In this document: positions 355 to 34,077 of the stretch, piece after piece
Numbering within the stretch: the first letter of the stretch is position 1
Layout: the number at the start of each line of letters is the position of its first letter
From: Psilocybe azurescens
Taxonomy: Eukaryota; Basidiomycota; Agaricomycetes; Agaricales; Agrocybaceae
Reading direction: 5' to 3'
Length of the DNA: 64,000 bases
Assembly: GCA_023853785.1 (NCBI GenBank)
Contig: JAJIRX010000815.1
Span: 62,001 to 126,000, forward strand
Made by a program: the position numbers and the translations under genes
The notes under the pieces: generated by a model
The model's input: only the letters and a program-made list of their open reading frames with translations
Told to the model about the DNA's origin: nothing
The model's database searches: none

Positions 355-1162
355 CACTGCTGGCGCCGACCAGTGTAAGTAAAACTTACAGCAAATTAAA
401 TACAGAACTTATGTAAGAATTGCTGTAAGTATGACATACAGCACTTCTATTTGAAAATAATACAGATAACAAACAGATATTCTGTTTGGTGGCTGTAAGC
501 TAAACAAACAGTATTTCTGTTTCTAAGCTGTAAGTCAATAATACACCCGAATAAAGAGAATTTCTATTCTTTGTCTGTTTGTTAAATATACAGAATAGTT
601 GTATGTAATTGCTGTATGTAAAACATACAGATATTGTGTATATAATCACTGTATGTTATACAAACACGAATTCTGTAAATAAAACTTACAGTCAAAGTAC
701 AGAATTTATGTATATAATTGCTGTATGTAAAACTTACACCAAAATATACAGTATTTGACTCGCTCAGGTATATTTTGGTGTAAGTTTTACATACAGCAAT
801 TATATACATAAATTCTGTACTTTGACTGTAAGTTTTCTTTACAGAACTCGTGTTTGTATAACATACAGTGATTATATACACAATATCTGTATGTTTTACA
901 TACAGCAATTACATACAACTATTCTGTATATTTAACAAACAGACAAAGAATAGAAATTCTCTTTATTCGGGTGTATTATTGACTTACAGCTTAGAAACAG
1001 AAATACTGTTTGTTTAGCTTACAGCCACCAAACAGAATATCTGTTTGTTATCTGTATTATTTTCAAATAGAAGTGCTGTATGTCATACTTACAGCAATTC
1101 TTACATAAGTTCTGTATTTAATTTGCTGTAAGTTTTACTTACACTGGTCGGCGCCAGCAGTG
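355..1162. mobile_element. CACTG-ended foldback element, copy 1 (CACTA-like, non-autonomous)
   Basis: The 808-bp segment is almost one perfect palindrome. It begins CACTGCTGGCGCCGACCAG and ends with the exact complement; the two arms are each about 395 bp, separated by a loop of roughly 16-20 bp near 752-772. It is flanked by TAT on both sides (352-354 and 1163-1165). Ends starting CACTG with a 3-bp target duplication fit the CACTA/CMC (EnSpm) superfamily. The arms are filled with short palindromes such as CTGTAAGTAAAACTTACAG and CTGTATGTAAAACATACAG, like the subterminal repeats of CACTA elements. It encodes no transposase; the open frames inside are translations of the repeat. A second copy lies at 13236-14055. 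Confidence 0.85.
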
Positions 1163-1165
1163 TAT

Positions 1166-13235: not shown

Positions 13236-14055
13236 CACTGCTGGCGCCAACCAGTGTAAGTAAAACTTACAGCGAATTAAATACAGAACTTTTGTAAGAA
13301 TTGCTGTAAGTATGACATACAGCACTTTTGTTTGAAAATAATACAGATAACAAACAGATATTCTGTTTGGTGGCTGTAAGTTAAACAAACAGTATTTCTG
13401 TTTCTAAGCTTTAAGTCAGTCGTTTACAGAAGACTCACTGATGCTTGATTTTTTGTAGTCAGTAAAGCATGTGTCAATGACATTAAATTGATTAAATTGA
13501 ATGATAGTGCACGTCTTTGCACCAATGAAATTAAATTGAATGAAAAGCAAGTTGATTCCAGCGTTTGAATAAAATCATTTTTTGTCAAGTGCGAGTTGCT
13601 ATTGCACTCAAAATGCGAATTATTTGCGCACTCATCGACTTGCTCAGCGAGTCGAATACTGTATATTTTGGTGTAAGTTTTACATACAGCAATTATATAC
13701 ATAAATTCTGTAAGTAAAACAAACAGAAACTCTGTACTTTGACTGTAAGTTTTCTTTACAGAACTTGTGTTTGTATAACATACAGTGATTACATACAGCA
13801 ATTACATACAGCTATTCTGTATATTTAACAAACAGACAAAGAATAGAAATTCTCTTTATTCGGGTGTATTATTGACTTAAAGCTTAGAAACAGAAATACT
13901 GTTTGTTTAACTTACAGCCACCAAACAGAATATCTGTTTGTTATCTGTATTATTTTCAAACAAAAGTGCTGTATGTCATACTTACAGCAATTCTTACAAA
14001 AGTTCTGTATTTAATTCGCTGTAAGTTTTACTTACACTGGTTGGTGCCAGCAGTG
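13236..14055. mobile_element. CACTG-ended foldback element, copy 2 (asymmetric, keeps unique core)
   Basis: 820 bp, ends CACTGCTGGCGCCAACCAG / complement with one mismatch. The left arm pairs with the right arm over 13236-13418 (about 183 bp); about 235 bp of unpaired sequence follows (to about 13655); then a long right arm matches the full right arm of copy 1. The core includes CGACTTGCTCAGCGAGTCG, related to the small loop of copy 1. Flanks are TGA and GGA, a two-of-three match. Arms within this copy share variants not found in copy 1 (for example GTTAAAC versus GCTAAAC). It lies inside the 3' end of the secreted-protein gene on the minus strand. Confidence 0.8.
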
Positions 14056-19374: not shown

Positions 19375-20819
19375 GGCAGCCCATGTGGGTAAATATTCAC
19401 CATAAACATTTTATTGTACATGAATATATTTTGACCTTGTGCAGTTATTTTTGATGTTCCTGCAGATATCTTAAACAATTATTTAGCTGCCCAGAAATAT
19501 GTTTGAGTGTGCAGAAACATTTTTAAGATGCCCATAAAAATGTTCATGCCCCTGAATTTGTTTAACCTAAAATTTGCCATATGCAGATATTTTAAAGCCC
19601 TCCAAACATTATGTGCAAGTTGTGCACATTTTCTTGAAAATTTTCCAAAAGAGCTGGCCAGAATGCTGTGATTATTAAATCTATCATCTCTGGCAAGTTG
19701 GCAGCACATTGGAGTTGAAACTCTGCTAGATGCAGTACAACTTTAATATTTTTCCACTGAATCTGGGCAATAGATCCCATTTAAACAATTTTAAGAAAGT
19801 CTTGGGTTTCTAAATATACAATAGAAGATATAAATGAACAGATTAACACAATGCTGCAAGTTGTGTGGTAGTATGCAAGTCTTCAGTTGTAATTTGATAA
19901 CTGTGCTAGGTGTGGGAAAGGATGAAAACAGCCTACTTGATGGTTTATAGCCCACCTACAAGGCAAGATATGAATGTCTGAAATGGAAGTATGATTGAAT
20001 AATTCTATTACTGTACTAAAGTATGTAAAAGTGTTAAAAAATTGAGTTTCCCTCCTTTGCTGAAGATGCTAGAGCAGATACAAAAGGCTGCCCAACTTAT
20101 ATAGTGGCTGTGCTAAAACACAACACCCAAAGGGTACCTATTATAAATAGTGATGTGCCAGTATTGACTGAGCATGCATTTTCATCTGTAGGTACTACTA
20201 TCAGCAAGTGGTGTAACTGGTTGAGGGATGACATCATCAAGGTGTTTCAATGCCTCAAACTCTTGTATCAAAATGATCTTATCTTTTGAGAGGTCATAAC
20301 AGCAGTTGAGGAGGAGCACAAGCTTGAGAAAGAACCCTTACTCAATAATGATAGTATTGAGGAGCTTGATGTGGACAAAGAATTTTCATAGGACCTGTTA
20401 ATTATTGATGAAAACAACAACAACAAAGCAAATGAATTATTGTAAATTAGATGAAAGACCTGTTCTTATAATTATTGTATTTACTCAGGTTTAGCTACAT
20501 GCAAATAAAGTAGCAGGAATTGTTGCATACCATCCTACCTTCCATTTAAAATTTGTTTCACATGTTTGGAGGGCTTTAAAATATCTGCACATGGCAAATT
20601 TTAGGTTAAAATAAATTCAGAGGTGTGAATATTTTTATGGGCATTGTAAAGAATGTTTCTGCACACTTAAACATATTTCTGGGCAGCTAAAAATCACTTA
20701 AGATATCTGCAGGAACATCAAAAATAACTGCGCGCAAGGTCAAAATATATTTCTGTGCAATAAATATTTATAGGCACAAGAGAATGTTTACAGAGAATAT
20801 TTACCTACATGGACTGCCC
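19375..20819. mobile_element. hAT transposon remnant with ~235-bp terminal inverted repeats
   Basis: The left 19375-19609 and right 20562-20819 segments are inverted copies of each other with scattered differences, starting GGCAG(C/T)CCATGT and ending at 'TTTAAAGCCCTCCAAACAT'. Shared landmarks include GCAGATATCTTAA and CTGCCCAGAAATATGTTT. The internal 950 bp hold the C-terminal relic of a hAT transposase at 20104-20289. I could not find a clean 8-bp target duplication, so the outermost bases may be eroded. Confidence 0.7.
20104..20289 (+). pseudogene. hAT transposase C-terminal dimerisation region, relic
   Basis: The frame reads 'VPVLTEHAFSSVGTTISKW' and 'IIKVFQCLKLLYQNDLIF'. It aligns by eye to the hAT C-terminal signature (S-[VI]-P-x-E-x-x-F-S-S … E-A-L-x-x-L-K). 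After the stop at 20287-20289 the same frame continues 'EVITAVEEEHKLEKEPLLN', so the stop is a lesion. No BED finger or DDE residues survive. Confidence 0.65.
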
Positions 20820-21483
20820 TAAAAGTATTAATAATTGAAAGACCTGTATATTTTAGCATTTCAATGACATCAGTCAGTCGTTGTGTGAATGGAGTGGGTG
20901 ATATAACACCTTGTTGCAGTAATTTTCCATGTACACAAAGACCAGTGACTTGAAAGACTTCACCTTCTCAATTACTCATGAATAACAAGAAAGAGCAACA
21001 TGACAAATTCACCAGCAACATGTTGTTATTCTTCCTTGAAACTCAATGAACATGGTAAGGTTTTCAAAGAGTATGCCAACCTGGAGGAGGCAATGCATGC
21101 TGTCATGCAAGAGTTTATATGCTAATTTCCAAAGAATGTACACATTACCAGATGGTGTCTCCATAGATGCCAATGTTGGGAGGATAAATACATTGCATTT
21201 TCCAAGCCAGAGCCAAAGAGAAGTAAGAAGGACAATAAATAGAAAGTATGCTCCTGTGCTGTGTCACAGGTGCTCAGCTAACGACATCTATTTTTTGTTG
21301 CTATTTGTGAAGTCACAGAAGTCCATGGTGCACCTGACATAAGACCCTATAGCCACAGAATTTGAAAGGAGAGGGATAAATAGGTTTACATTAGGAAGAC
21401 TTCTCCAATTTTCAGTGAGTTGTGAGCTCATTGCTATTGTAGGCCAGCGGTGCCATCTCAGGAGTCAGAAGCTACCATTATTA
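20820..21483. other. repeat island spacer, nothing recognised
   Basis: AT-rich. The plus frame at 21046-21342 has no motif. Ends with TA at 21482-21483, the left target site of the Tc1 element. Confidence 0.4.
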
Positions 21484-23049
21484 CAGTAGCTCAAAAAACT
21501 GTCCCAATGTTTTGCACTTTCTCACTAATTGTTTAATAACTTGGGAAATAAATTATGTAAAAGTCTGAAAATATTATATGTTATAGTTCAACATGTGAAT
21601 AACATATTTCTCACCAAGGTCACATGATTTTAACAAAAACTGATTAAGTAATGGAATTTACAAAATAATAGAGCATTGGGACAGTTTTTTGACTCTCTAT
21701 CTAGTACTTAGTATGGCCTCCCTTTGCCTTGATAACAGCCTCCATTCTCCTTGGCATGCTTTCTATAAGCTTTTGGCATGTTTCTGAAGGTATTTCAGTC
21801 CATTCCTTTGCCAATCTCTCCCACAATTCAAATGCTCCTTTGGGTGGTGTCTCATAGGTGTTCATTTGCCTTTTGAGATAAACCCAAAGGTGTTCAATGG
21901 GGTTGAGATCAGGGGATTGGGGTGGCCACTCCATAACTTCAACATCATTGGCCAAAAACCATTCTTGTGCTTTTTTTGGAGGTGTGTTTGGGGTCATTAT
22001 CCTGCTGAAAAATCCTTTTCCCTCTGCCATCTCCAAGTTGTCAAAGCTTTCATCCACCCCATGCTCCAAAATTTCACAGTATTGGTCTGCATTCATCTTC
22101 CCTCAACCTCAGTGAGTGTTCCAACACCATTCCACCCCATACAACCCCATACCATGAGATTGTTGCCCTCTCCATGCTCAACAGTTGGTGATGTTGTTCT
22201 ATCTGAGATTGCTTCACCCTTGGGTTTCCATGTATAGACCCTTCCATCTGAGCCAATCCTGTTGATTTTTGTTTCATCTGACCAGAGTACTCTTTTCCAA
22301 TCCTCCACAGTCCAGCCAACATGATTCTGGGCAAATTTTAGGCGTTTTTGATGGTGGATAGCCTTGAGGAGGGGCCGTTTTGATTTAACAACAGAGCAGA
22401 AGTTGTTTTCTTTGAGGGCATTTCTGACTATTTGGGCACAAACAGGAGAGGGAATAGCATCATTGATGAAGTGTGTTGCCTGGACAGCATTGTCTAGCTT
22501 TCCTGTTTTGATTTGATGAAAAAGGACCTGTTTATCCTTGGGAGTAAGCTTGGGGGATGTCCACCTTTGTTGTTTTGGGGGTTTTCTTTATTGGCATCCA
22601 CTTCCCTCTTGATTCTTCCAACAGTAGACTTTCCCAAACCAGTTTTAGACTCTATTTGACGAAGAGAATAGCCCTCTTCAAGAAGATTGAGGACAGAATT
22701 GTACTGAGAAGGTGTTGCAGGCTTTATGATGTGGTGGTTAATGTGTACAAATAGTGTCACATGACCTTGTTTAATTTTCTCACAATTTATACAAAGCAAT
22801 TTGGCTTTCTACAAGCATGTAAAGCTATTATTTTATAGGGTCAAAAAACTGTCCCAATGTTTTATTATTTTGTAAATTCCATTACTTAATCAGTTTTTAT
22901 TAAAATCATGTGACCTTGGTAAGAAATATGTTATTCACATATTAAAATATAACATATAATATTTTCAGACTTTTACATAATTTATTTCCCAAGTTATTAA
23001 ACAATTAGTGAGAAAGTGCCAAATATTGGGACGGTTTTTTGAGCAACTG
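21484..23049 (-). mobile_element. Tc1/mariner element (DD34E), inactive
   Basis: 1566 bp flanked by TA (21482-21483 and 23050-23051). Outer ends read CAGTAGCTCAAAAAACTG and, complemented, CAGTTGCTCAAAAAACCG. The terminal inverted repeats extend about 200 bp. Each end also carries an inner copy of the TCAAAAAACTGTCCCAATG motif in opposite orientation (21675-21693 and 22840-22858). The transposase lies on the minus strand and is broken. Confidence 0.9.
21701..22799 (-). pseudogene. Tc1-type transposase, frameshifted
   Basis: N-terminal helix-turn-helix: 'SLRQIESKTGLGKSTVGRI' near 22660. Catalytic core: first Asp in 'WSDETKI' (about 22290), second in 'QQDNDPKHTS' (about 21990), Glu in 'PQSPDLNPIEHLW' (about 21875). 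The spacing between the second Asp and Glu is 34 residues, so DD34E. C-terminus 'RRMEAVIKAKGGHTKY' is typical of Tc1 proteins. Frame changes occur after the HTH part (about 22535), at the junction near 22093 and at an A7 run (about 21975) between DPKHTS and KKAQEW. So no intact enzyme, yet motifs are well preserved, implying recent loss. Confidence 0.88.
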
Positions 23050-24035
23050 TATATCCATGAAGCCAGTGATAGATAATTCCATTCAAAAACAGAAATACAT
23101 TCAATGAGATGTTGTCTCATCCGAGCAAAAGCACCGGATTTTTTGACAGTACTGCTCACAATAAGTTAGTCCCGTATGATGATCATGAGAAAGGAAAGAG
23201 ACATCATTATCGCTGCGATCCAACAACTTAATGCAGTCCATGCGAGATTGGTATGTATCAGTTTCAGGTAATGTGTCAACATGTGCTGAGTTTGGAGCTG
23301 AGTTTGGGCCTCATCCATTGTGACTATAAAGCCTCACTTTATTTATTGACATTATCTATATGTTGATTGTTTGTTGAACTTATCTTCCAGATCTATAAAT
23401 ATATCTGATAGACAACACATCTCTCCACTGTCTTTTCTCAGTAACTGAGGTTTTTCATTGAAATTATCTGATATGCAGCAGGTTTCATTGACAACATTCA
23501 GAGTCTGCCGTTCTGGGATGTTGTGTCATAATCTATAATTGTACGTCACCTATAGTCAAACCAGATCAGCACGTCTGTTCATTCAAGTGTCCATGTTGTC
23601 AAATCAATGGTTACAAATATTGTGCCTTTGTTTTATTAGAATATACTATAGATAAAAGAATTAGAATACTTTACAGTGTTCTGAAGTATCCTCAAGAGCT
23701 GGGGTTATAGATCCCAGAGAAGGTATGGAACTAGAGGTGGGTCCCGGTTAGTGGCTCCCAGATTGAATTTCTTCCTCTAAAAGGAAGACCTGGAATCAGT
23801 ATTGAACAATATGAATTATTAAGTGCCTGAAGTCTATCACAACTATAGAACTGGTGAGGTTCAGATCAACTGAGCTGACATAGGCCTGGACAGACTGCCT
23901 ATTATACTCACCTTATATCCCCAATGTATTATCTGACCAGGTATAGGTGTCGTGAGAAAAATTGTCAATAGGTGGTATCATATAAGATACAGCTTACCTG
24001 CTTTTATGTCCTCAAGAACTCTGATCATCTTCACC
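23050..24035. other. repeat island spacer, nothing recognised
   Basis: No gene or repeat family identified. Its right end leads into the isolated 7-TM first exon and should hold that gene's former promoter. Confidence 0.35.
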
Positions 24036-24132: not shown

Positions 24133-24159
24133 GTATGTCTTTGCAAGGTCTTTCCTTTC

Positions 24160-25902
24160 CCCACATAATCCATATGGACTCTAGTGGACTCCAGTGGACT
24201 CTCTGTCCAGCCAAACTGGCTGACAGATTGTCTAGTCCACTGGACTGGAACTGGACTGCAGTCCACTGGAGTCCACTGGACTTGCACTGGACTCCTGCCA
24301 AATTTTCAGTCCAGTCTCGGTCCAGTGGATTATGAGTCCAGTCAAGTCCACTGGAGTCCACTGGAGTCCAGTGGACTGGGGCTTAAATATTCACTGAACA
24401 ACAATAAATAATATATTTATCAGCACAGTCCAGTGGGGTCCAGTGGAGTCCAGTTGAGTCCATAGGAGTCCACTGGATGCAATAATTAACACAATATCCA
24501 AAGTATGATCATTAGTTATTAATATTAATATCAATTGCAAAAATAAAAAACTACTGTCAATGGAAATAAACTCTATGAAATAACAATTGAATGAAACAAT
24601 AGTTAAATATACATGGGAGCAAAGCCTCCCTATGAATATATTTTTGTATTTTGTTCAGTCCACAGGGTGAAAGTTTCACAGGCACATGTGATGTGCATGC
24701 ATGCCCAGCATCAGCCGATCAGCACAACAACAATCAAATATACACATCAGCTCTTTTTCCAACCACCACCCACCCCTTCCTCTCCTTTTTTACATTGCCG
24801 CTGCTGTTCTCACCCTCTCTGCCATCCATGATGACCGTGACGGCCATGCAGACAACAACAAGGACAGACATGGACAATCACAACAACAAGGGCAACAACA
24901 GATGGTGAGGGCACAGATGGTGAGGGCAAGGACAGCGAGTATGAGGGCAAGGACAGCGACTGCAAGGGCAAGGACAGCGGGGACAGCAAGCATGAGGGTG
25001 GGTACGGCAAGGGTGAGGGTGGGTACAGTGATGGTGAGGGTGGGTAGAGCAAGGGCAAGGGCAAGGGCAAGGGCAAGGGCAAGGGCAAGGACGGTGGGGA
25101 CGGCAAGGGTGAGGACAGCAGGGACGGCAAGGGTGAGGACAGCAGGGATGGCAAGGGTGAGGATGGCAGGGATGGCAAGGGTGAGGACGGCAGGGATGGC
25201 AAGGGCAAGGACGGTGAGGACGGCAAGAGCAAGGGCAAGAACAGCAGGGACAGTGAGGACAAGGGTGGGTACAGCAAGGGCAAGGGTAGGTACAGCAAGG
25301 GCAAGGGTAGGTGCAGTGAGTGCGAGGATAGCGGGGACGGCAAGGGCAAGGGTAGGTATGGCAAGGGCAAGAGTGGGCACGGCAAGGGCAAGGGCAAGGG
25401 CAAGGGCAAGGGCAAGGGCAAGGGCAAGGGCAAGGGCAAGCATGGCAGGGACGGTGAGCACGAGGGTGGGGATGGTGAGTGCAAGGGTGGGGACAGCAGG
25501 GACAGTGAGGATGAGGGTGGGGACAGTGAGGGTGAGGATGGGGACAGCAAGGGCGAGGATGGCAGGTGCTACTACCATCCTCCCGCCCCCTTTTTTGCTT
25601 TTTTCTTTTTGTCTTGGACCTCGCAAGTAGACATTAATGTATTACATAGTTATTAATATATTGTATTCCACTCTTCTGAATTTATATTAAGATTGAACTT
25701 ATTTACTATATCAAGTCCAGTGGACTCCAGTTATCTTAGTCCATATTCACTGTATAGTATAAAGTCTACTGCAGTCCAGTGGAATCTAGTGGAGTCCAGT
25801 CAAGTCAAGTCAAGTCCACTGGAGTCCACTGGACTCTGTTCACCATTTTACACTCAGTATATAGGCAAGTCCAGTGGAGTCCATATGGACTGTGTGGAGG
25901 AT
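24160..25902. mobile_element. TCCAnTGGA-array inverted-repeat element 1 with GGGCAA-rich core
   Basis: Left end CCACATAATCCATATGGACT (24161-24180), right end complementary (…GTCCATATGGACTGTGTGG). Both ends carry 200-300 bp of dense, alternating TCCAGTGGA / GGACTCC / GGAGTCC words that can pair with themselves. Between lies a module with a CCAACCACCACC stretch, a long purine-rich array of GGGCAAGGACAGC-type units (24901-25570), then CCTCCCGCCCCCTTTTTT and TGTATTACATAGTTATTAATATATTG. Long frames across the core are low-complexity in every phase; one phase reads Gly/Lys/Asp/Glu repeats. Superfamily unknown. Confidence 0.7.
25053..25440 (+). repeat. (GGGCAA)n runs with G-quadruplex-forming pattern
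   Basis: Two uninterrupted runs of GGGCAA at about 25053-25089 (six units) and 25386-25440 (nine units), joined by degenerate GGGCAAGGAC / GGGTGAGGAC units. Each run meets the G3-N3-G3-N3-G3-N3-G3 pattern. A shorter run of four units occurs in element 3 at 28446-28475; element 2 carries a degenerate C-strand version. Confidence 0.8.
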
Positions 25903-26080
25903 GGTGAAGTACTGCTAAATTCTGATGTCAAATCTGGGGTGTAGATTACTTGGTTTCTATTCTAAGATACAGAACTGTTTTTATAGACTAAATAGATACT
26001 TTGGCTTGTGATAATTGAAAGAGACTAAGAGAAAAGGAAAGAAATAGGCCATGTGCTGTCTAGCCTTTGCTGCAGTACTT

Positions 26081-27266
26081 TACCATTCTCCACATAGTCC
26101 ATATGTACTCCAGTGGACTCCAGTGGATTCCACTGGACCAGTAGAATTTATAATAACTATGTAATACATTATTATCTACTTGTCAGGTCCAAGACAAAAA
26201 GAAGAAAAAAGCAAAAATTAAAAATTAAAAAAGGGACAGAAGATGGTAGTGTCAGCTGTAGCACCTGCTGTCTATGTCATTTTCCTTGCCCTTGCCATCT
26301 GCATCCTTGTTATCCTTGCCCTTGTTGTCCTTGCCTTTCTTGCCTTTGCCCTCCTTGCCCTTGTCCTTGTTGTCCTTGCTCTCACTATCTGTGTTCTCAC
26401 CCTTGCCTTTGCCATCTGTGTCTTTGTCCTTGCAGTCCTCATCCTTGCTCTCTACATTCTATCCCTAGCCCTTGCCCTTGCTGTCCTCACTGTCCACATC
26501 CTTGCCCTCACTGGCCATCCTTGCCCTTGCCTTCCACATCCTCACTGTCTGTGTCCTTGCTGTTGCTGTCCTTATTCTTATTGTGACTTTCCTTGCCCTC
26601 ATTGTCATTGTTGTTGTCTATTGTTGTCCTCATTATTGCAGTTGTCCATGTGCATCCTCGGTGTTGTCTGCATGGCCATTGTGATCATCATGGACAGTGG
26701 AGAGGCCAAAGACAGCAACAGAAACAGAAAAAGGAGAGGAAGGAGGTGGAGAGGGCTGGTGGTGGTTGGAAAAGAAGAGGTGTCATGTACATTTGATGGC
26801 TTTTGTGCTGATCAGCTGATGCTGGGCACATGTGGCTATGAAATGTTCATCCTGCAGACTGAACAAAATGCAAAAATCTCTTCATAGGGAGGCCATGCTC
26901 CCAAACACATTTAACTACTGTTTTATTTAATTGTTATTTCATAGAGTTAATTCTATTGAATATATATATATATATATATTGCAATTGATATTAATATTAA
27001 TAACTAATGATTATACTATGGATATTGTGTTAATTATTGCATCCAGTGGACTGTGCTAATAAAAATATTATTTGTTGTTGTTCAGTGAATATTTAAGCCC
27101 AAGTCCAGTGGAATTGACTCCCAGTGGACTCATAATCCACTGAACAGAGACTGGACTGAAATTTTGGCAGGAGTCCAGTGGACTAGATAATTGGTCAGCC
27201 TGTTTGGCTGGGAAAGAGTCCACTGACTCCATTGGAGTCTATATGAAATGTGTGGAGGATGGTAAA
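26081..27266. mobile_element. TCCAnTGGA-array inverted-repeat element 2 (inverted relative to element 1)
   Basis: Left end TACCATTCTCCACATAGTCC (26081-26100), right end complementary (…GTGTGGAGGATGGTA). Read on the minus strand it follows element 1 in order: GTCAGCCAAA-like segment, AATATTTAAGCCC, TGCATCCAGTGG, GGGAGCATGGCCTCCCTATG, CAGCATCAGCTGATCAGCAC, CCAACCACCACC, the core array (here CCCTTG-rich on the plus strand), then AAAAAAGGGA and AATGTATTACATAG. The core is shorter and more diverged than in element 1. Confidence 0.7.
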
Positions 27267-27377
27267 AACTTTAGGCAATAGTTGTTGTGGGATGATAGAA
27301 AACATAAATAGGTGTATTCTAAGATTTCACCATTTGCTCTGTGATAAAATTAATTAATGTTTTTTAGATATGTTTTG

Positions 27378-27486
27378 TTACACACTCAGCTCAGCCTCAA
27401 CCAATTTAGCTGGCCTTTCAATGATCTCAGATTCATCATTACTTGTATTATTGTCCTCTTTGTCACTGAGTTCAATGACTGATGGC
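27378..27486 (-). pseudogene. short acidic coding fragment, unknown
   Basis: A minus frame reads 'SVIELSDKEDNNTSNDESEI' then 'ERPAKLVEAELSV' to a TAA at 27380-27378. The amino acid mix looks like a linker of a transposon protein. It lies between elements 2 and 3. Too short for a family call. Confidence 0.3.
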
Positions 27487-27514
27487 TGCTTTGGAGGTCT
27501 TTATTCTCACCCAG

Positions 27515-28965
27515 ATATTTCATATGGACTCCACCAACTCCATGCCAGAGTTGGTGGAGTCCACATGGAGTTTGGTGACTCTTTTTGGCAGGTGTACCAG
27601 TCATTTAGAGGTGGAGACACCACCTGGAGTCCAGCTGGAATTGACTCATCCTCCATGTGGGCCAATGTGGAGGATGTGGAACTCCATCTGGACTCCATGT
27701 GGAATTTCATGTGGATTTAAGTCATAAATCATGTATATTGGCATGAATACACAATTTTAGGACCAAATTCAAATGGACTCCAGGTGGAGGAAGGTCCCCA
27801 AATTTTATTTATATTTTATTGTATTTTATTATATTGTATTATACTGTAAAAAATAAAATGCACAAACAGGAATTGAATACACACATCCAAGAAGGCTGTA
27901 CACTAGCAATAAACCAACTGAACTATGAAGCCTTTGGTATATATCAAAATTTGATCCCATACATACTGATTTGGCTAATTATCTTGGCAATTCTTGGCAA
28001 GTGTTAAACAATGTCATGTGTGTGACTTGTTGTTGCTATGCCAGTATGCCAGCCCCACTCTTTCTTCCAACCACCACCACCACTACCCTTGTCAGTCAGA
28101 GCCAGATGACAGCCAACTCAGCATGACAGAGGACACTGAAGACTGCAAGGGCCATGACCACAATGAGAACAGCAGCCAGGACAACAAACTGTGACCACAA
28201 CAATGAGGCCATGGACAAGGAAAACCACAACCACAACCACAATGACAGGGACATGGACAAGGATGACCATGATCATGACTGCAATGACAAGGATGTGGAC
28301 AAGAATGACCACAACCATGATCACAAAAATGATGGCATAGACATGAATGTCGACAACTACAACAATGAGGACATGGGTGAGGGCAAGGCCAACAGCAAGG
28401 CCAACAGTGAGGGCAAGAGCAAAAGGGGCAATGAGAGCAAGAGCAAGGGCAAGGGCAAGGGCAAGGGCAAGGGTGAGGACAACATCAATGTTGACATGTA
28501 CAATCAACTTGATGCACCCCATGACACATATGGCTGAGGCTATGGCCAACACAATTATCCTCCCTCCCCCTTTTTTTTTAAGGTTTTACCTTATTTTTTT
28601 AATAATGGATCTTGCAAGTAAATAAAAATGTAATACATAGTTGTTAATATATTATGTTACACTTATATGAATTTACATTAAGATTGAAAGATTAATATAT
28701 TTCAGTTGGAATCCAACTGAATTCTAATCCATGAAGTTAAAGTTGGGAACTCCAATTGAGTCCACCTGGAGTCCAGGTGGACTCTAATTGAACTCTATTT
28801 GGACTCAAATAGAATTGTTTGGAGTCCACCTGAACTCCACATATCAAAGATAGTTTTTTGAACATTTACATATGTTCTAGGTGGAGTCCATGTGGAGTCC
28901 ACCACTTTTATATGGAGTTGGTGGACTCCACATGGAATACCTGGGTGGAGGTAAAGTACACCTGC
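27515..28965. mobile_element. TCCAnnTGGA-array inverted-repeat element 3 (same design, different end words)
   Basis: Left end CCAGATATTTCATATGGACT… (about 27515) pairs with the right end …CACATGGAATACCTGGGTGG (28960). Words here are GGTGGAGTCCACATGGAG and GGAGTCCACCTGGAC rather than CCAGTGG. Same core order: CCAACCACCACC, an acidic/His frame ('DDHDHDCNDKDVDKNDHNHD'), GGGCAA x4 at 28446-28475, CCTCCCTCCCCCTTTTTTTT, then TGTAATACATAGTTGTTAATATATT. The plus frame 28154-28537 could be the least damaged version of a low-complexity protein shared by the family. Confidence 0.65.
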
Positions 28966-29879
28966 TGTGATAGATCGCCAAGCTTTTTTTTGAAGATAGG
29001 GTGATATCAATAAAGTTAGTTGATGTCTGACAAATATACATTAGTTATGGATCATTGTTGAAAATAAAAATAATGGCTTTACATTTGATATTTTGTTGTT
29101 TTTTTTGAAGTTTTGCAGCAATACTAGTCTTTTTTCTTTTAAATGGCTTCTAGACTAGTGATAGTAAGTTTACAAAGATAAATTGTTAATTTCACTCACT
29201 CCAGGTAAGGATTCCATACTAGGTGAGAATTCAACAACATTTTTCAAGTTGGTTTTTGAGATCTTTTAGTGAATAGACCTTTTATGGAACTGGTTATTTT
29301 AGTCTTGACTTTTAGAATATGGACAAAGCAGATGGAATTAGCAGCTACAGCTTCATTACCACTATCAGTCTGAATTGATAGAGTATTTGTGAGAATAGAC
29401 AGATTTTTTGCCTTATGGACAATAAGTAATTGTGGCTGTTTAGATCTGCACAACTCTTATATAATAAAATTACTATTTTAAAACAATAGGTCACTCAGGG
29501 TCACAGGTGCTCAATGTATGACCCACATCTGAATCCAAAAACACCCATACCTATAACCTGTGTAGATATGGCTGACCTCTGCATTTCTCTAGTGATGTGG
29601 ATACCTGTGATTGGAGGAAAAGGTGGTGTGGTTGGAGTAATAAACAGACAACTGTGGCATTAACAAGTCATGCACATGACATTGTTTGTCATTTGCCAAG
29701 AAATCTTAAGTAAAAATACCAAAGTCAGTATGTAGGCCATCAAATTTTTATAATTAACAATGCATTTGTGGCACAGTTGATTTATCATTTGTGATTGTGC
29801 TTCTTGGATGCCTGAGTGCAATTCATGTTGGTGTGTTTTATTTTTTTACACCAGTATAAAATACAATAAAAATAATAAA

Positions 29880-30215
29880 AATAATGGGACTTTATTCCAC
29901 TTGAATTCCACTTTATTCCATTGGAATGGACCTGTATTAGACCAAACCCAATGCAGTATATGGTATTCCAGTTAGATTACAGTTGGATTTTACATAAATT
30001 CCAGCTATTCCATTGGAATGAAAGTGGAATATTCCAGTTGGAATGGCCTATTTTGTGGAATGTAGTTGGAATCTATTTGGAATACATGTTGGTTCTCCCA
30101 TACAAAATACCAGGTTCTTCCATACAAAATACCAGAGTGATATGACATGAAATTTCAAACTGGAATCCAACAGAATAGGCAAAGCATGGTAATGACCTTG
30201 TATCTTGGTGTATCA
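29880..30215. repeat. ATTCCAnnTGGAAT array, a further variant of the same design
   Basis: Dense words TTCCACTTGAATTCCA, ATTCCATTGGAATG, TTCCAGTTGGAATGG and GTTGGAATCTATTTGGAA form a self-complementary block resembling the arms of elements 1-3 with changed words. No core module seen, so it may be a solo end or a miniature copy. Confidence 0.5.
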
Positions 30216-30275
30216 TCAAGAATATTAAGGCCTATGTAAAGTCCATTTCTTTTCTACTTCCATCTAAAATAAAAT

Positions 30276-30440
30276 TGTTTGGAGTCTACCTGGAATCTAC
30301 CAGGGCTTCATTTATCACAGATGATTTTTGAACCTTTGAATATGTTCCAAATAGAGTCCATGTGGAGTCCACCACTTTGGTATGGAGTTGGTGGACTTCA
30401 TATAGAATTTCTAGGTGGAGGTAAAGTACAGAGTACAGTG
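30276..30440. mobile_element. solo right end of an element-3-type repeat
   Basis: TTGTTTGGAGTCTACCTGGA through GGTGGAGGTAAAGTACAGAG repeats 28810-28965 of element 3, including GAGTCCATGTGGAGTCCACC and TATGGAGTTGGTGGACT. The left half is absent. Marks either a truncated copy or a recombination product. Confidence 0.65.
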
Positions 30441-32834: not shown

Positions 32835-33431
32835 ATATAACTGTAATACATGCAAGTGAACAAATAAAAAGTGCTTTATTTGCTTTATGTGATGTGCATT
32901 ATCATGTTTACTGCCCCATGGTAAGCACTTTACTGACTAGTCAATATCACTATATTACTGTTGAGGCAGTTGCATTTATGAGTAATTTCCCAATTTATAT
33001 CAATAAATAAAGCTCATATATTAAGTTTCTGAGCCATGGGATGCCTGGGTCCTCATATACATACCCATCTTCTCCAAGATCTACACTACATTTACAGTTA
33101 AACTATGTTACTATGCATGTTCCTCTCTTTTAAACCTATTAATATCATCTATTAGACTAAAGCTACCCAATTACTTGGTATATAACCACAGTTGAACAAG
33201 GCAGAGAAACTAGAATAGTCCCAGTAGAAAGACCTCTCTTAACATGTCTAAATATGGCCAAATAGCACAATAAATAGTTTAATTAGTCACTCTAGGTATG
33301 GGACAGGAAGGGCATGCAAAAAGCAGAAGAAACTGTCCGGGGACAGTGGAATATACATGCTTGCTGTGTCCAACAGCGAGCAGAGGACAGTGGAACAGCA
33401 CCAGAGATTGCCATCAATGATTGTCACTCTA

Positions 33432-34075
33432 CTTGTGGCCAAAAAAGTGACCGGACACCACATTTGGCCACAACTGTATGTTCAATTTTCTTCATTTTTG
33501 GTGGATACAAGGACTATATAGAACGTAGTAAATTTTCAAAATTTTATAATATTCGGATAAAATCTGACCGAGAAATATGACTATTTCCCCTTCTACGGAG
33601 GAGGGAAATTTGTAAGAAATTTTTTGAGTGCTCATTCTTTGGGAGGATACAGACGTATATATTCGAAGGGTGGGACAAGTTGTCTCAAGTTCATATCTTC
33701 ATTTCTCAATGAGATATGCAGGTCGAAAGTACAGTGTTTTTACTCATAATTGCTATTTTCACACAATATGAAGCAGGTTGCCTGCCTTATATCTCCTCAA
33801 CAAAAAAGTTATACTCATGATTTAAGTTATCCCATACTTAAATTGACTCCCTCTAGCTCCTGTAAAAATTTTAGGTCTTAAATAAAATTTCTGACAATTC
33901 TCCCTCATGTGAAGAAAGAGTAATAACCACATTTCTCAGTTAGATTTCATCCAAATATTAAAAGCTTTTCAGAATATACTATGTTCCATATTATCTTCCC
34001 ATCCACCAAAAATAAAGAAAGTCGAACCAGCCGTTGTGGTCAAATGTGGTGTCCAATCACTTTTTTGACCGCGAG
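33432..34075. mobile_element. Tc1/mariner-type MITE with long imperfect arms
   Basis: 644 bp between TA dinucleotides (33430-33431 and 34076-34077). Ends: CTTGTGGCCAAAAAAGTGAC and, complemented, CTCGCGGTCAAAAAAGTGAT, followed on both sides by GGACACCACATTTG. Similarity between the arms continues through TTTTTGGTGGAT and TATT(C/T)GGAT(A/G)AAATCT to about 150 bp. No coding capacity. Confidence 0.8.
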
Positions 34076-34077
34076 TA

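What the first reader, a model, noticed from the sequence alone, without database searches (positions are those of the whole stretch)
24160..28965. Undescribed-looking transposon family: self-complementary word arrays around a GGGCAA-rich core
Elements at 24160-25902, 26081-27266 (inverted) and 27515-28965 share one ordered layout: array of palindromic words, CCAACCACCACC module, purine-rich core coding for acidic/Lys-Gly low complexity, C-then-T run, TGTAATACATAGTTATTAATATATT, second array. The end words differ between them (TCCAGTGGA, TCCACnTGGA, and TTCCAnnGGAA at 29880) while the palindromic rule stays. That suggests end words evolve together on both ends and that the rule, not the sequence, is selected. 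This is my best candidate for a system not yet described.
Basis: partly seen in the sequence, partly recalled or inferred. Interest (0 to 1): 0.75.

Follow-up and report, generated by a model that had tools for sequence, protein, structure and literature searches.

The report
Mushroom transposons with spaced end-word arrays
These are cut-and-paste jumping genes of a mushroom-forming fungus whose ends are packed with one short word repeated at a family-specific spacing; longer relatives with the same ends carry a gene of a little-understood fungal family that now looks like their transposase.

Summary
The window holds three gene-less DNA transposons: E1 24145-25914, E2 26073-~27272 (inverted), E3 27494-28961. 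They belong to multicopy families with TIRs (GAGGTCTTTMC... / rc GTGTACTTTACC or CAGTACTTTACC) and 8-bp target duplications (25 of 53 end pairs; mispaired ends 216 of 200,000 draws), with paralogous empty sites. The "palindromic words" are TCCA/TGGA half-site pairs: the half-site is constant, the spacing is family-specific and the same at both ends. Three longer copies (6.4, 6.4, 7.8 kb) with matching ends and exact 8-bp duplications each carry a CxC5/CxC6 cysteine-cluster gene, a family named so far only as "associated with KDZ transposases". A relative models as an integrase-like DDE enzyme with conserved acids, so it is probably the transposase; KDZ membership was not shown. Two mosaic copies carry one family's interior inside another family's ends. 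Binding and transposition were not tested.

The parts
24145..25914 (+). E1, gene-less element of the L067 family (1-bp word spacer, 1-bp linker)
   Evidence: ends; 564 bp at 82% and 123 bp at 89% shared with gene-bearing L067; no target duplication found
24160..24480 (+). E1 left word array, 10 TCCA-N-TGGA
24759..24770 (+). CCAACCACCACC module of E1
24889..25570 (+). purine-rich GGGCAA core of E1; no conserved frame shown
25638..25662 (+). TGTAATACAT module of E1
25661..25905 (+). E1 right word array, 5 TCCA-N-TGGA
26073..27272 (-). E2, inverted shorter E1-type element; left (high-coordinate) end degenerate
27494..28961 (+). E3, gene-less element of the L065 family (2-bp word spacer, 1-bp linker)
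   Evidence: left 301 bp at 78% and right 196 bp at 85% shared with gene-bearing L065
27486..27493 (+). left copy of E3 target duplication, CTGCTTTG
28962..28969 (+). right copy of E3 target duplication, CTGCTGTG (7 of 8)
28629..28653 (+). TGTAATACAT module of E3
29662..30431 (.). composite: inverted piece of E3 left interior, TTCCA/TGGAA words, E3-type right end

Best explanation
E1, E2 and E3 are non-autonomous DNA transposons moved in trans by transposases of the CxC5/CxC6 family, which are encoded in 6.4-7.8-kb elements with the same ends. Shown: TIRs, 8-bp target duplications, paralogous empty sites, and gene-bearing copies that share ends and arrays with the gene-less ones. Supported by modelling: the CxC5/CxC6 protein has an RNase H-like, integrase-type catalytic domain with D398, D567 and E647 (P0165 numbering), the CxC6 cluster being inserted between its first and second strands. 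Inferred: part of this protein binds TCCA half-sites; two protomers bind each TCCA-spacer-TGGA pair; pairs repeated every 10 or 11 bp lie on one face of the helix and load many protomers at each end. Each transposase reads one spacing, so both ends of an element must carry the same class: spacer 1 and linker 1 (L067), 2 and 1 (L065), 1 and 2 (L066+L068). A gene-less element changes driver by exchanging both ends together, as L016 and L018 record.
Against: No activity or binding was tested. 28 of 53 end pairs show no duplication (some are chance one-mismatch end matches, window E1 is among them). Foldseek's own best match is weak and is a terminase nuclease (E 0.047). L065 carries in-frame stops. 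The TGTAATACAT module and most of the core of the gene-less copies were not found in the gene-bearing ones. 15 of 21 CxC5/6 loci have no exact end motif within 2 kb downstream, and 2 of the 21 have one in another place or orientation. Copies of one family are related, so the word agreement rests on three or four independent families.
Confidence: 0.78

Rival explanations
1. They are driven by a canonical KDZ (Zisupton/Dileera) or hAT transposase encoded elsewhere, and the CxC5/CxC6 gene is an accessory or passenger.
For: 8-bp duplications fit Zisupton, Dileera and hAT (PMC12730594); the Pfam names say KDZ-associated; at least 170 KDZ matches in the genome; a sub-threshold KDZ hit in the L067 core, E 0.077, 13.1 bits against a cut-off of 26.6.
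Against: None of 28 KDZ loci on contigs up to C313 has a family right end within 2 kb (the KDZ list was truncated). No KDZ or hAT domain above cut-off in the 14 reading frames scanned in L065, L066 and L067. Profile comparison of CxC5/6 with KDZ gives a probability of at most 1%. The CxC5/6 protein has a catalytic-looking fold of its own.
Confidence: 0.14
2. The gene-bearing copies are secondary: gene-less elements caught a CxC5/CxC6 gene, which is cargo.
For: The gene-less copies share a module that the gene-bearing ones lack.
Against: Three families with different ends each carry the gene in the same place and orientation, and the genes differ between families (54.7-60.2% over the aligned core pieces).
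Confidence: 0.05
3. The CxC5/CxC6 unit moves with a Copia-type retrotransposon, as proposed for the Pleurotus MSH4 insert.
For: Co-localisation reported in Pleurotus (PMC7641404).
Against: Own TIRs, 8-bp duplications and empty sites here.
Confidence: 0.02
4. The arrays are ordinary satellites without fixed boundaries.
For: Tandem arrays and low-complexity cores.
Against: Sharp ends, duplications, empty sites.
Confidence: 0.01

Closest known systems
KDZ transposons of fungi (Zisupton, Dileera, Kyakuja)
   Same: 8-bp duplications for Zisupton and Dileera, TIRs for Zisupton (PMC12730594, passages); CxC cysteine clusters in the protein by Pfam's naming
   Different: No PF18758 domain above cut-off and no profile similarity; Kyakuja has 7-bp duplications, CA..TG termini and no TIRs by PMC12730594
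CxC5/CxC6 insert in Pleurotus ostreatus MSH4 (PMC7641404)
   Same: 6.8-kb insert with one CxC5/CxC6 gene, dozens of copies, no KDZ gene near it
   Different: The passages and section seen report no TIR or duplication and ascribe it to Copia; its ends were not examined here
hAT transposons such as Hermes (PMC10368747)
   Same: 8-bp duplication and zinc-finger reading of short subterminal repeats, cooperative on a quasi-palindromic pair
   Different: Half-site AAGT rather than TCCA; BED finger and hAT domains not found in the frames scanned
MITEs and other non-autonomous TIR elements
   Same: Share ends with a larger gene-bearing element, multicopy, duplications
   Different: 1.2-2.9 kb, long word arrays, large interior not taken from the gene-bearing copies seen, mosaic ends

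Membership tests
TIR DNA transposon (class II) | terminal inverted repeats | tested here: met
TIR DNA transposon (class II) | fixed-length target duplication and empty site | tested here: met
   8 bp
TIR DNA transposon (class II) | DDE transposase encoded between the same ends | tested here: inconclusive
   gene linked to the ends and modelled as DDE-like; activity not tested
KDZ (Kyakuja-Dileera-Zisupton) | KDZ transposase domain PF18758 | tested here: not met
   absent in 7 full or near-full relatives; 13.1 bits against a cut-off of 26.6 in L067; hhalign probability at most 1%
KDZ (Kyakuja-Dileera-Zisupton) | CxC-type cysteine cluster | tested here: met
   CxC6 above cut-off in L065, CxC5 above cut-off in L066 and L067
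KDZ (Kyakuja-Dileera-Zisupton) | 8-bp duplication (Zisupton, Dileera) | tested here: met
   reference PMC12730594
KDZ (Kyakuja-Dileera-Zisupton) | same catalytic fold as KDZ | tested here: inconclusive
   no KDZ model was made; integrase-like matches only
hAT | 8-bp duplication | tested here: met
hAT | hAT dimerisation or BED domain in the element's gene | tested here: not met
   no such Pfam hit in 14 frames scanned or in 7 relatives
MITE | ends shared with a gene-bearing element | tested here: met
MITE | short length (under about 0.8 kb, recalled) | tested here: not met
   1.2-2.9 kb
MITE | mobilised in trans | not testable with these tools
   needs a transposition assay

The most novel reading that the evidence does not exclude
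CxC5/CxC6 proteins define their own superfamily of eukaryotic DDE transposons, with the CxC6 zinc cluster inserted between the first two strands of the catalytic fold. End recognition is a spacing code: one TCCA half-site, read at 1-bp or 2-bp pair spacing and 10- or 11-bp phase. Gene-less elements switch transposase by exchanging both ends as a pair.
Probability: 0.45. Interest if true: 0.75.

Novelty: new variant of a known kind. Interest (0 to 1): 0.62.

Why it matters
CxC5/CxC6 genes are abundant in mushroom genomes (141 exon-level matches here; 645 database proteins) and are named only by association with KDZ. One such insert made an oyster mushroom sporeless (PMC7641404), and what moved it was left open, with Copia suggested. 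If this reading is right, such inserts are DNA transposons in their own right. The half-site spacing then offers a directly testable code for how a transposase tells its own ends from a sister family's, and how gene-less passengers change drivers.

Tried and rejected
Satellite: rejected by sharp ends, duplications and empty sites. Canonical KDZ as driver: abundant but not linked to the ends, profile comparison negative. Rfam: nine sub-threshold miRNA matches, taken as chance. A tRNA-like stretch that I thought I saw in E3- and L016-type interiors: ARAGORN found none in the ten loci given. First structure job (P0089, 40 rows) too weak to use (pLDDT 59.1). Solved-structure sequence search: only TRPM2 channels at E 0.035, taken as chance. 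Empty site for the E3-type copy nested in L028: only short repeat matches, inconclusive. Joined flanks of L031 and L035 matched with 3-14 gaps and are not counted as empty sites. Upstream reading frame: L065 and L067 share 27% over 88 aa, L066 and L065 nothing. Literature: no account of CxC5/CxC6 elements with TIRs in searches of the held library; Iyer et al. 2014 is not held; Boehne et al. 2012 was not seen; Repbase was not searched. hAT and other transposase families were not searched genome-wide.
Full report
Setting. The window lies in a 70.37-Mb genome of 937 contigs. The best outside relatives of two of its transposon proteins are from Psilocybe cyanescens, 90% identity over 70% and 80% of the queries.

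The observation. Reading the region and mapping repeats gives the three elements. Genome searches gave 100 matches for E3 and 168 for E1, lower bounds by the tool's own note; 56 loci, L009-L064, were fetched. The copies end sharply: left GAGGTCTTTAC or GAGGTCTTTCC, right (reverse complement) GTGTACTTTACC in the E3 family and CAGTACTTTACC in the E1 family. GAGGTCTTTACC, GTGTACTTTAC and CAGTACTTTACC occur 163, 374 and 316 times, against 8, 47 and 9 for the same strings read backwards.

Boundaries and insertion. 53 left-end matches (one mismatch allowed) have a right end 0.3-8 kb downstream; 25 show an 8-bp duplication with at most one mismatch, or exact with a 1-bp slip. Mispaired ends pass in 216 of 200,000 draws. 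Of the 24 fetched copies listed, 19 are exact at the expected place, 4 exact after a 1-bp slip, 1 has one mismatch; the 25th is window E3. The 28 failures include window E1, other real copies and chance end matches. Joined flanks with one duplication copy match uninterrupted sequence for L018 (100% over 160 bp, no gap), and for L051, L010, L067 and L065 (97.5, 92, 92 and 85%, 1 or 2 gaps).

Words. In the 24 copies, nearly all words are TCCA-N-TGGA or TCCA-NN-TGGA. The 9 E3-type copies (gene-bearing L065 included) have no 1-bp spacer at either end; three of them have one odd word of spacing 0 or 3. Of 11 E1-type copies (L067 included), 10 have 1-bp spacers at both ends, with at most one 2-bp word per end (TCCATATGGA lies in the TIR); the eleventh, the outer L028 copy, holds a nested E3-type copy whose words fall into its right side. 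The 4 L016-type copies have mainly 1-bp spacers at both ends, three of them with one to three 2-bp words on the right. Linkers between words differ too: 1 bp in E1 and E3 types, 2 bp in the L066/L016 type, so the unit repeats every 10, 11 and 11 bp.

Gene-bearing relatives. Pairing end positions by eye pointed to a 6.4-kb interval. L065 is a 6,373-bp element with E3 ends and duplication CATCACCC; 301 bp on its left match E3 at 78% and 196 bp on its right at 85%. It codes a protein with CxC6 above Pfam's cut-off and CxC5 below it, and has in-frame stops. L067 is a 6,421-bp element with E1 ends and duplication TATGAAAG, sharing 564 bp at 82% and 123 bp at 89% with E1; CxC5 is above cut-off. L066+L068 is a 7,795-bp element with duplication CATGCATC; CxC5 is above cut-off. 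In L066 and L067 the CxC6 stretch was seen only through the protein match. Upstream of the gene each has an acidic, low-complexity reading frame, the same kind of sequence as the gene-less cores. The end lists show only the first 100 places, so the linkage count was limited to contigs up to C313. There, 6 of 21 CxC5/6 loci have an exact family right end within 2 kb downstream in the right orientation (0.2 expected); 2 of 21 have one in another place or orientation; of 28 KDZ loci none has one in either sense. The KDZ list itself was truncated.

End exchange. L016 and L018 are mosaics. Positions 1-286 and 1-318 match the L066-type left end. E3-type interior starts there, just after where E3's left array stops. 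E3's right end follows to its last base, then a second module copy, a short L066 interior piece, and the L066-type right end. Nine of nine gene-less E1-type copies with a duplication (L028 set aside) keep an inner GGTAAAGTACTG 222-445 bases from the right end; L065 and L067 have only the outer one. The TGTAATACAT module occurs in gene-less copies of all three end classes and was not found in the three gene-bearing elements; its origin is unexplained.

Mechanism. Best reading: a cysteine-cluster DDE transposase that loads onto pairs of a 4-bp half-site, repeated in helical phase at both ends, the spacing set by the family. Hermes is an analogue: its BED fingers read 4-bp subterminal repeats and bind a quasi-palindromic pair cooperatively (PMC10368747, passages). 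Shown: ends, duplications, empty sites, gene linkage, spacing classes, mosaics. Modelled: the DDE-like fold. Inferred: which part binds TCCA, binding as a dimer, movement in trans.

Relation to print. PMC12730594 (outline with abstract, section 3.2.1, passages) gives 8-bp duplications for Zisupton and a Dileera family, 7 bp for Kyakuja, and has no occurrence of CxC in its main text. PMC7641404 (passages and one section) reports a 6,792-bp CxC5/CxC6 insert in Pleurotus MSH4, no KDZ gene near such genes, and suggests Copia. PMC12568894 (one passage) repeats that. PMC12062965 (passages) concerns CxC7 of fish Zisupton. Searches of the held library showed no account of CxC5/CxC6 elements with TIRs.

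Verdict. What is kept is better put as a half-site plus a family spacing than as a bare palindromic rule. I file them as a new variant of a known kind, possibly a separate superfamily.

Noticed in passing
window 355-1163 and 13236-14055: Two roughly 810-base fold-back elements (arms 88-99% alike) full of ACAG/CTGT words; another self-complementary repeat family unrelated to the TCCA words.
   Followed up: partly
window 21482-21699 / 22834-23051; 19402-19609 / 20562-20771; 33430-33623 / 33884-34077: Three further inverted repeat pairs of 194-218 bases, 94, 89 and 77% alike.
   Followed up: no
G000, positions: CAGTACTTTACC right ends often come as same-strand pairs about 320-415 bases apart in the 100 places listed, which fits the inner copy seen in gene-less E1-type elements.
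   Followed up: partly
genome G000: At least 170 canonical KDZ (PF18758) matches and none in 14 control genomes: a large KDZ expansion beside the CxC5/CxC6 one.
   Followed up: partly
L065:2872-3333 and L067:3048-3527 (minus): An upstream reading frame without a Pfam name is shared by two families, 27% over 88 aa; possibly a second element protein.
   Followed up: partly
L011, L012, L015: Three E3-type copies share both flanks and lack a target duplication, so they look like copies of one insertion spread by segment duplication.
   Followed up: no
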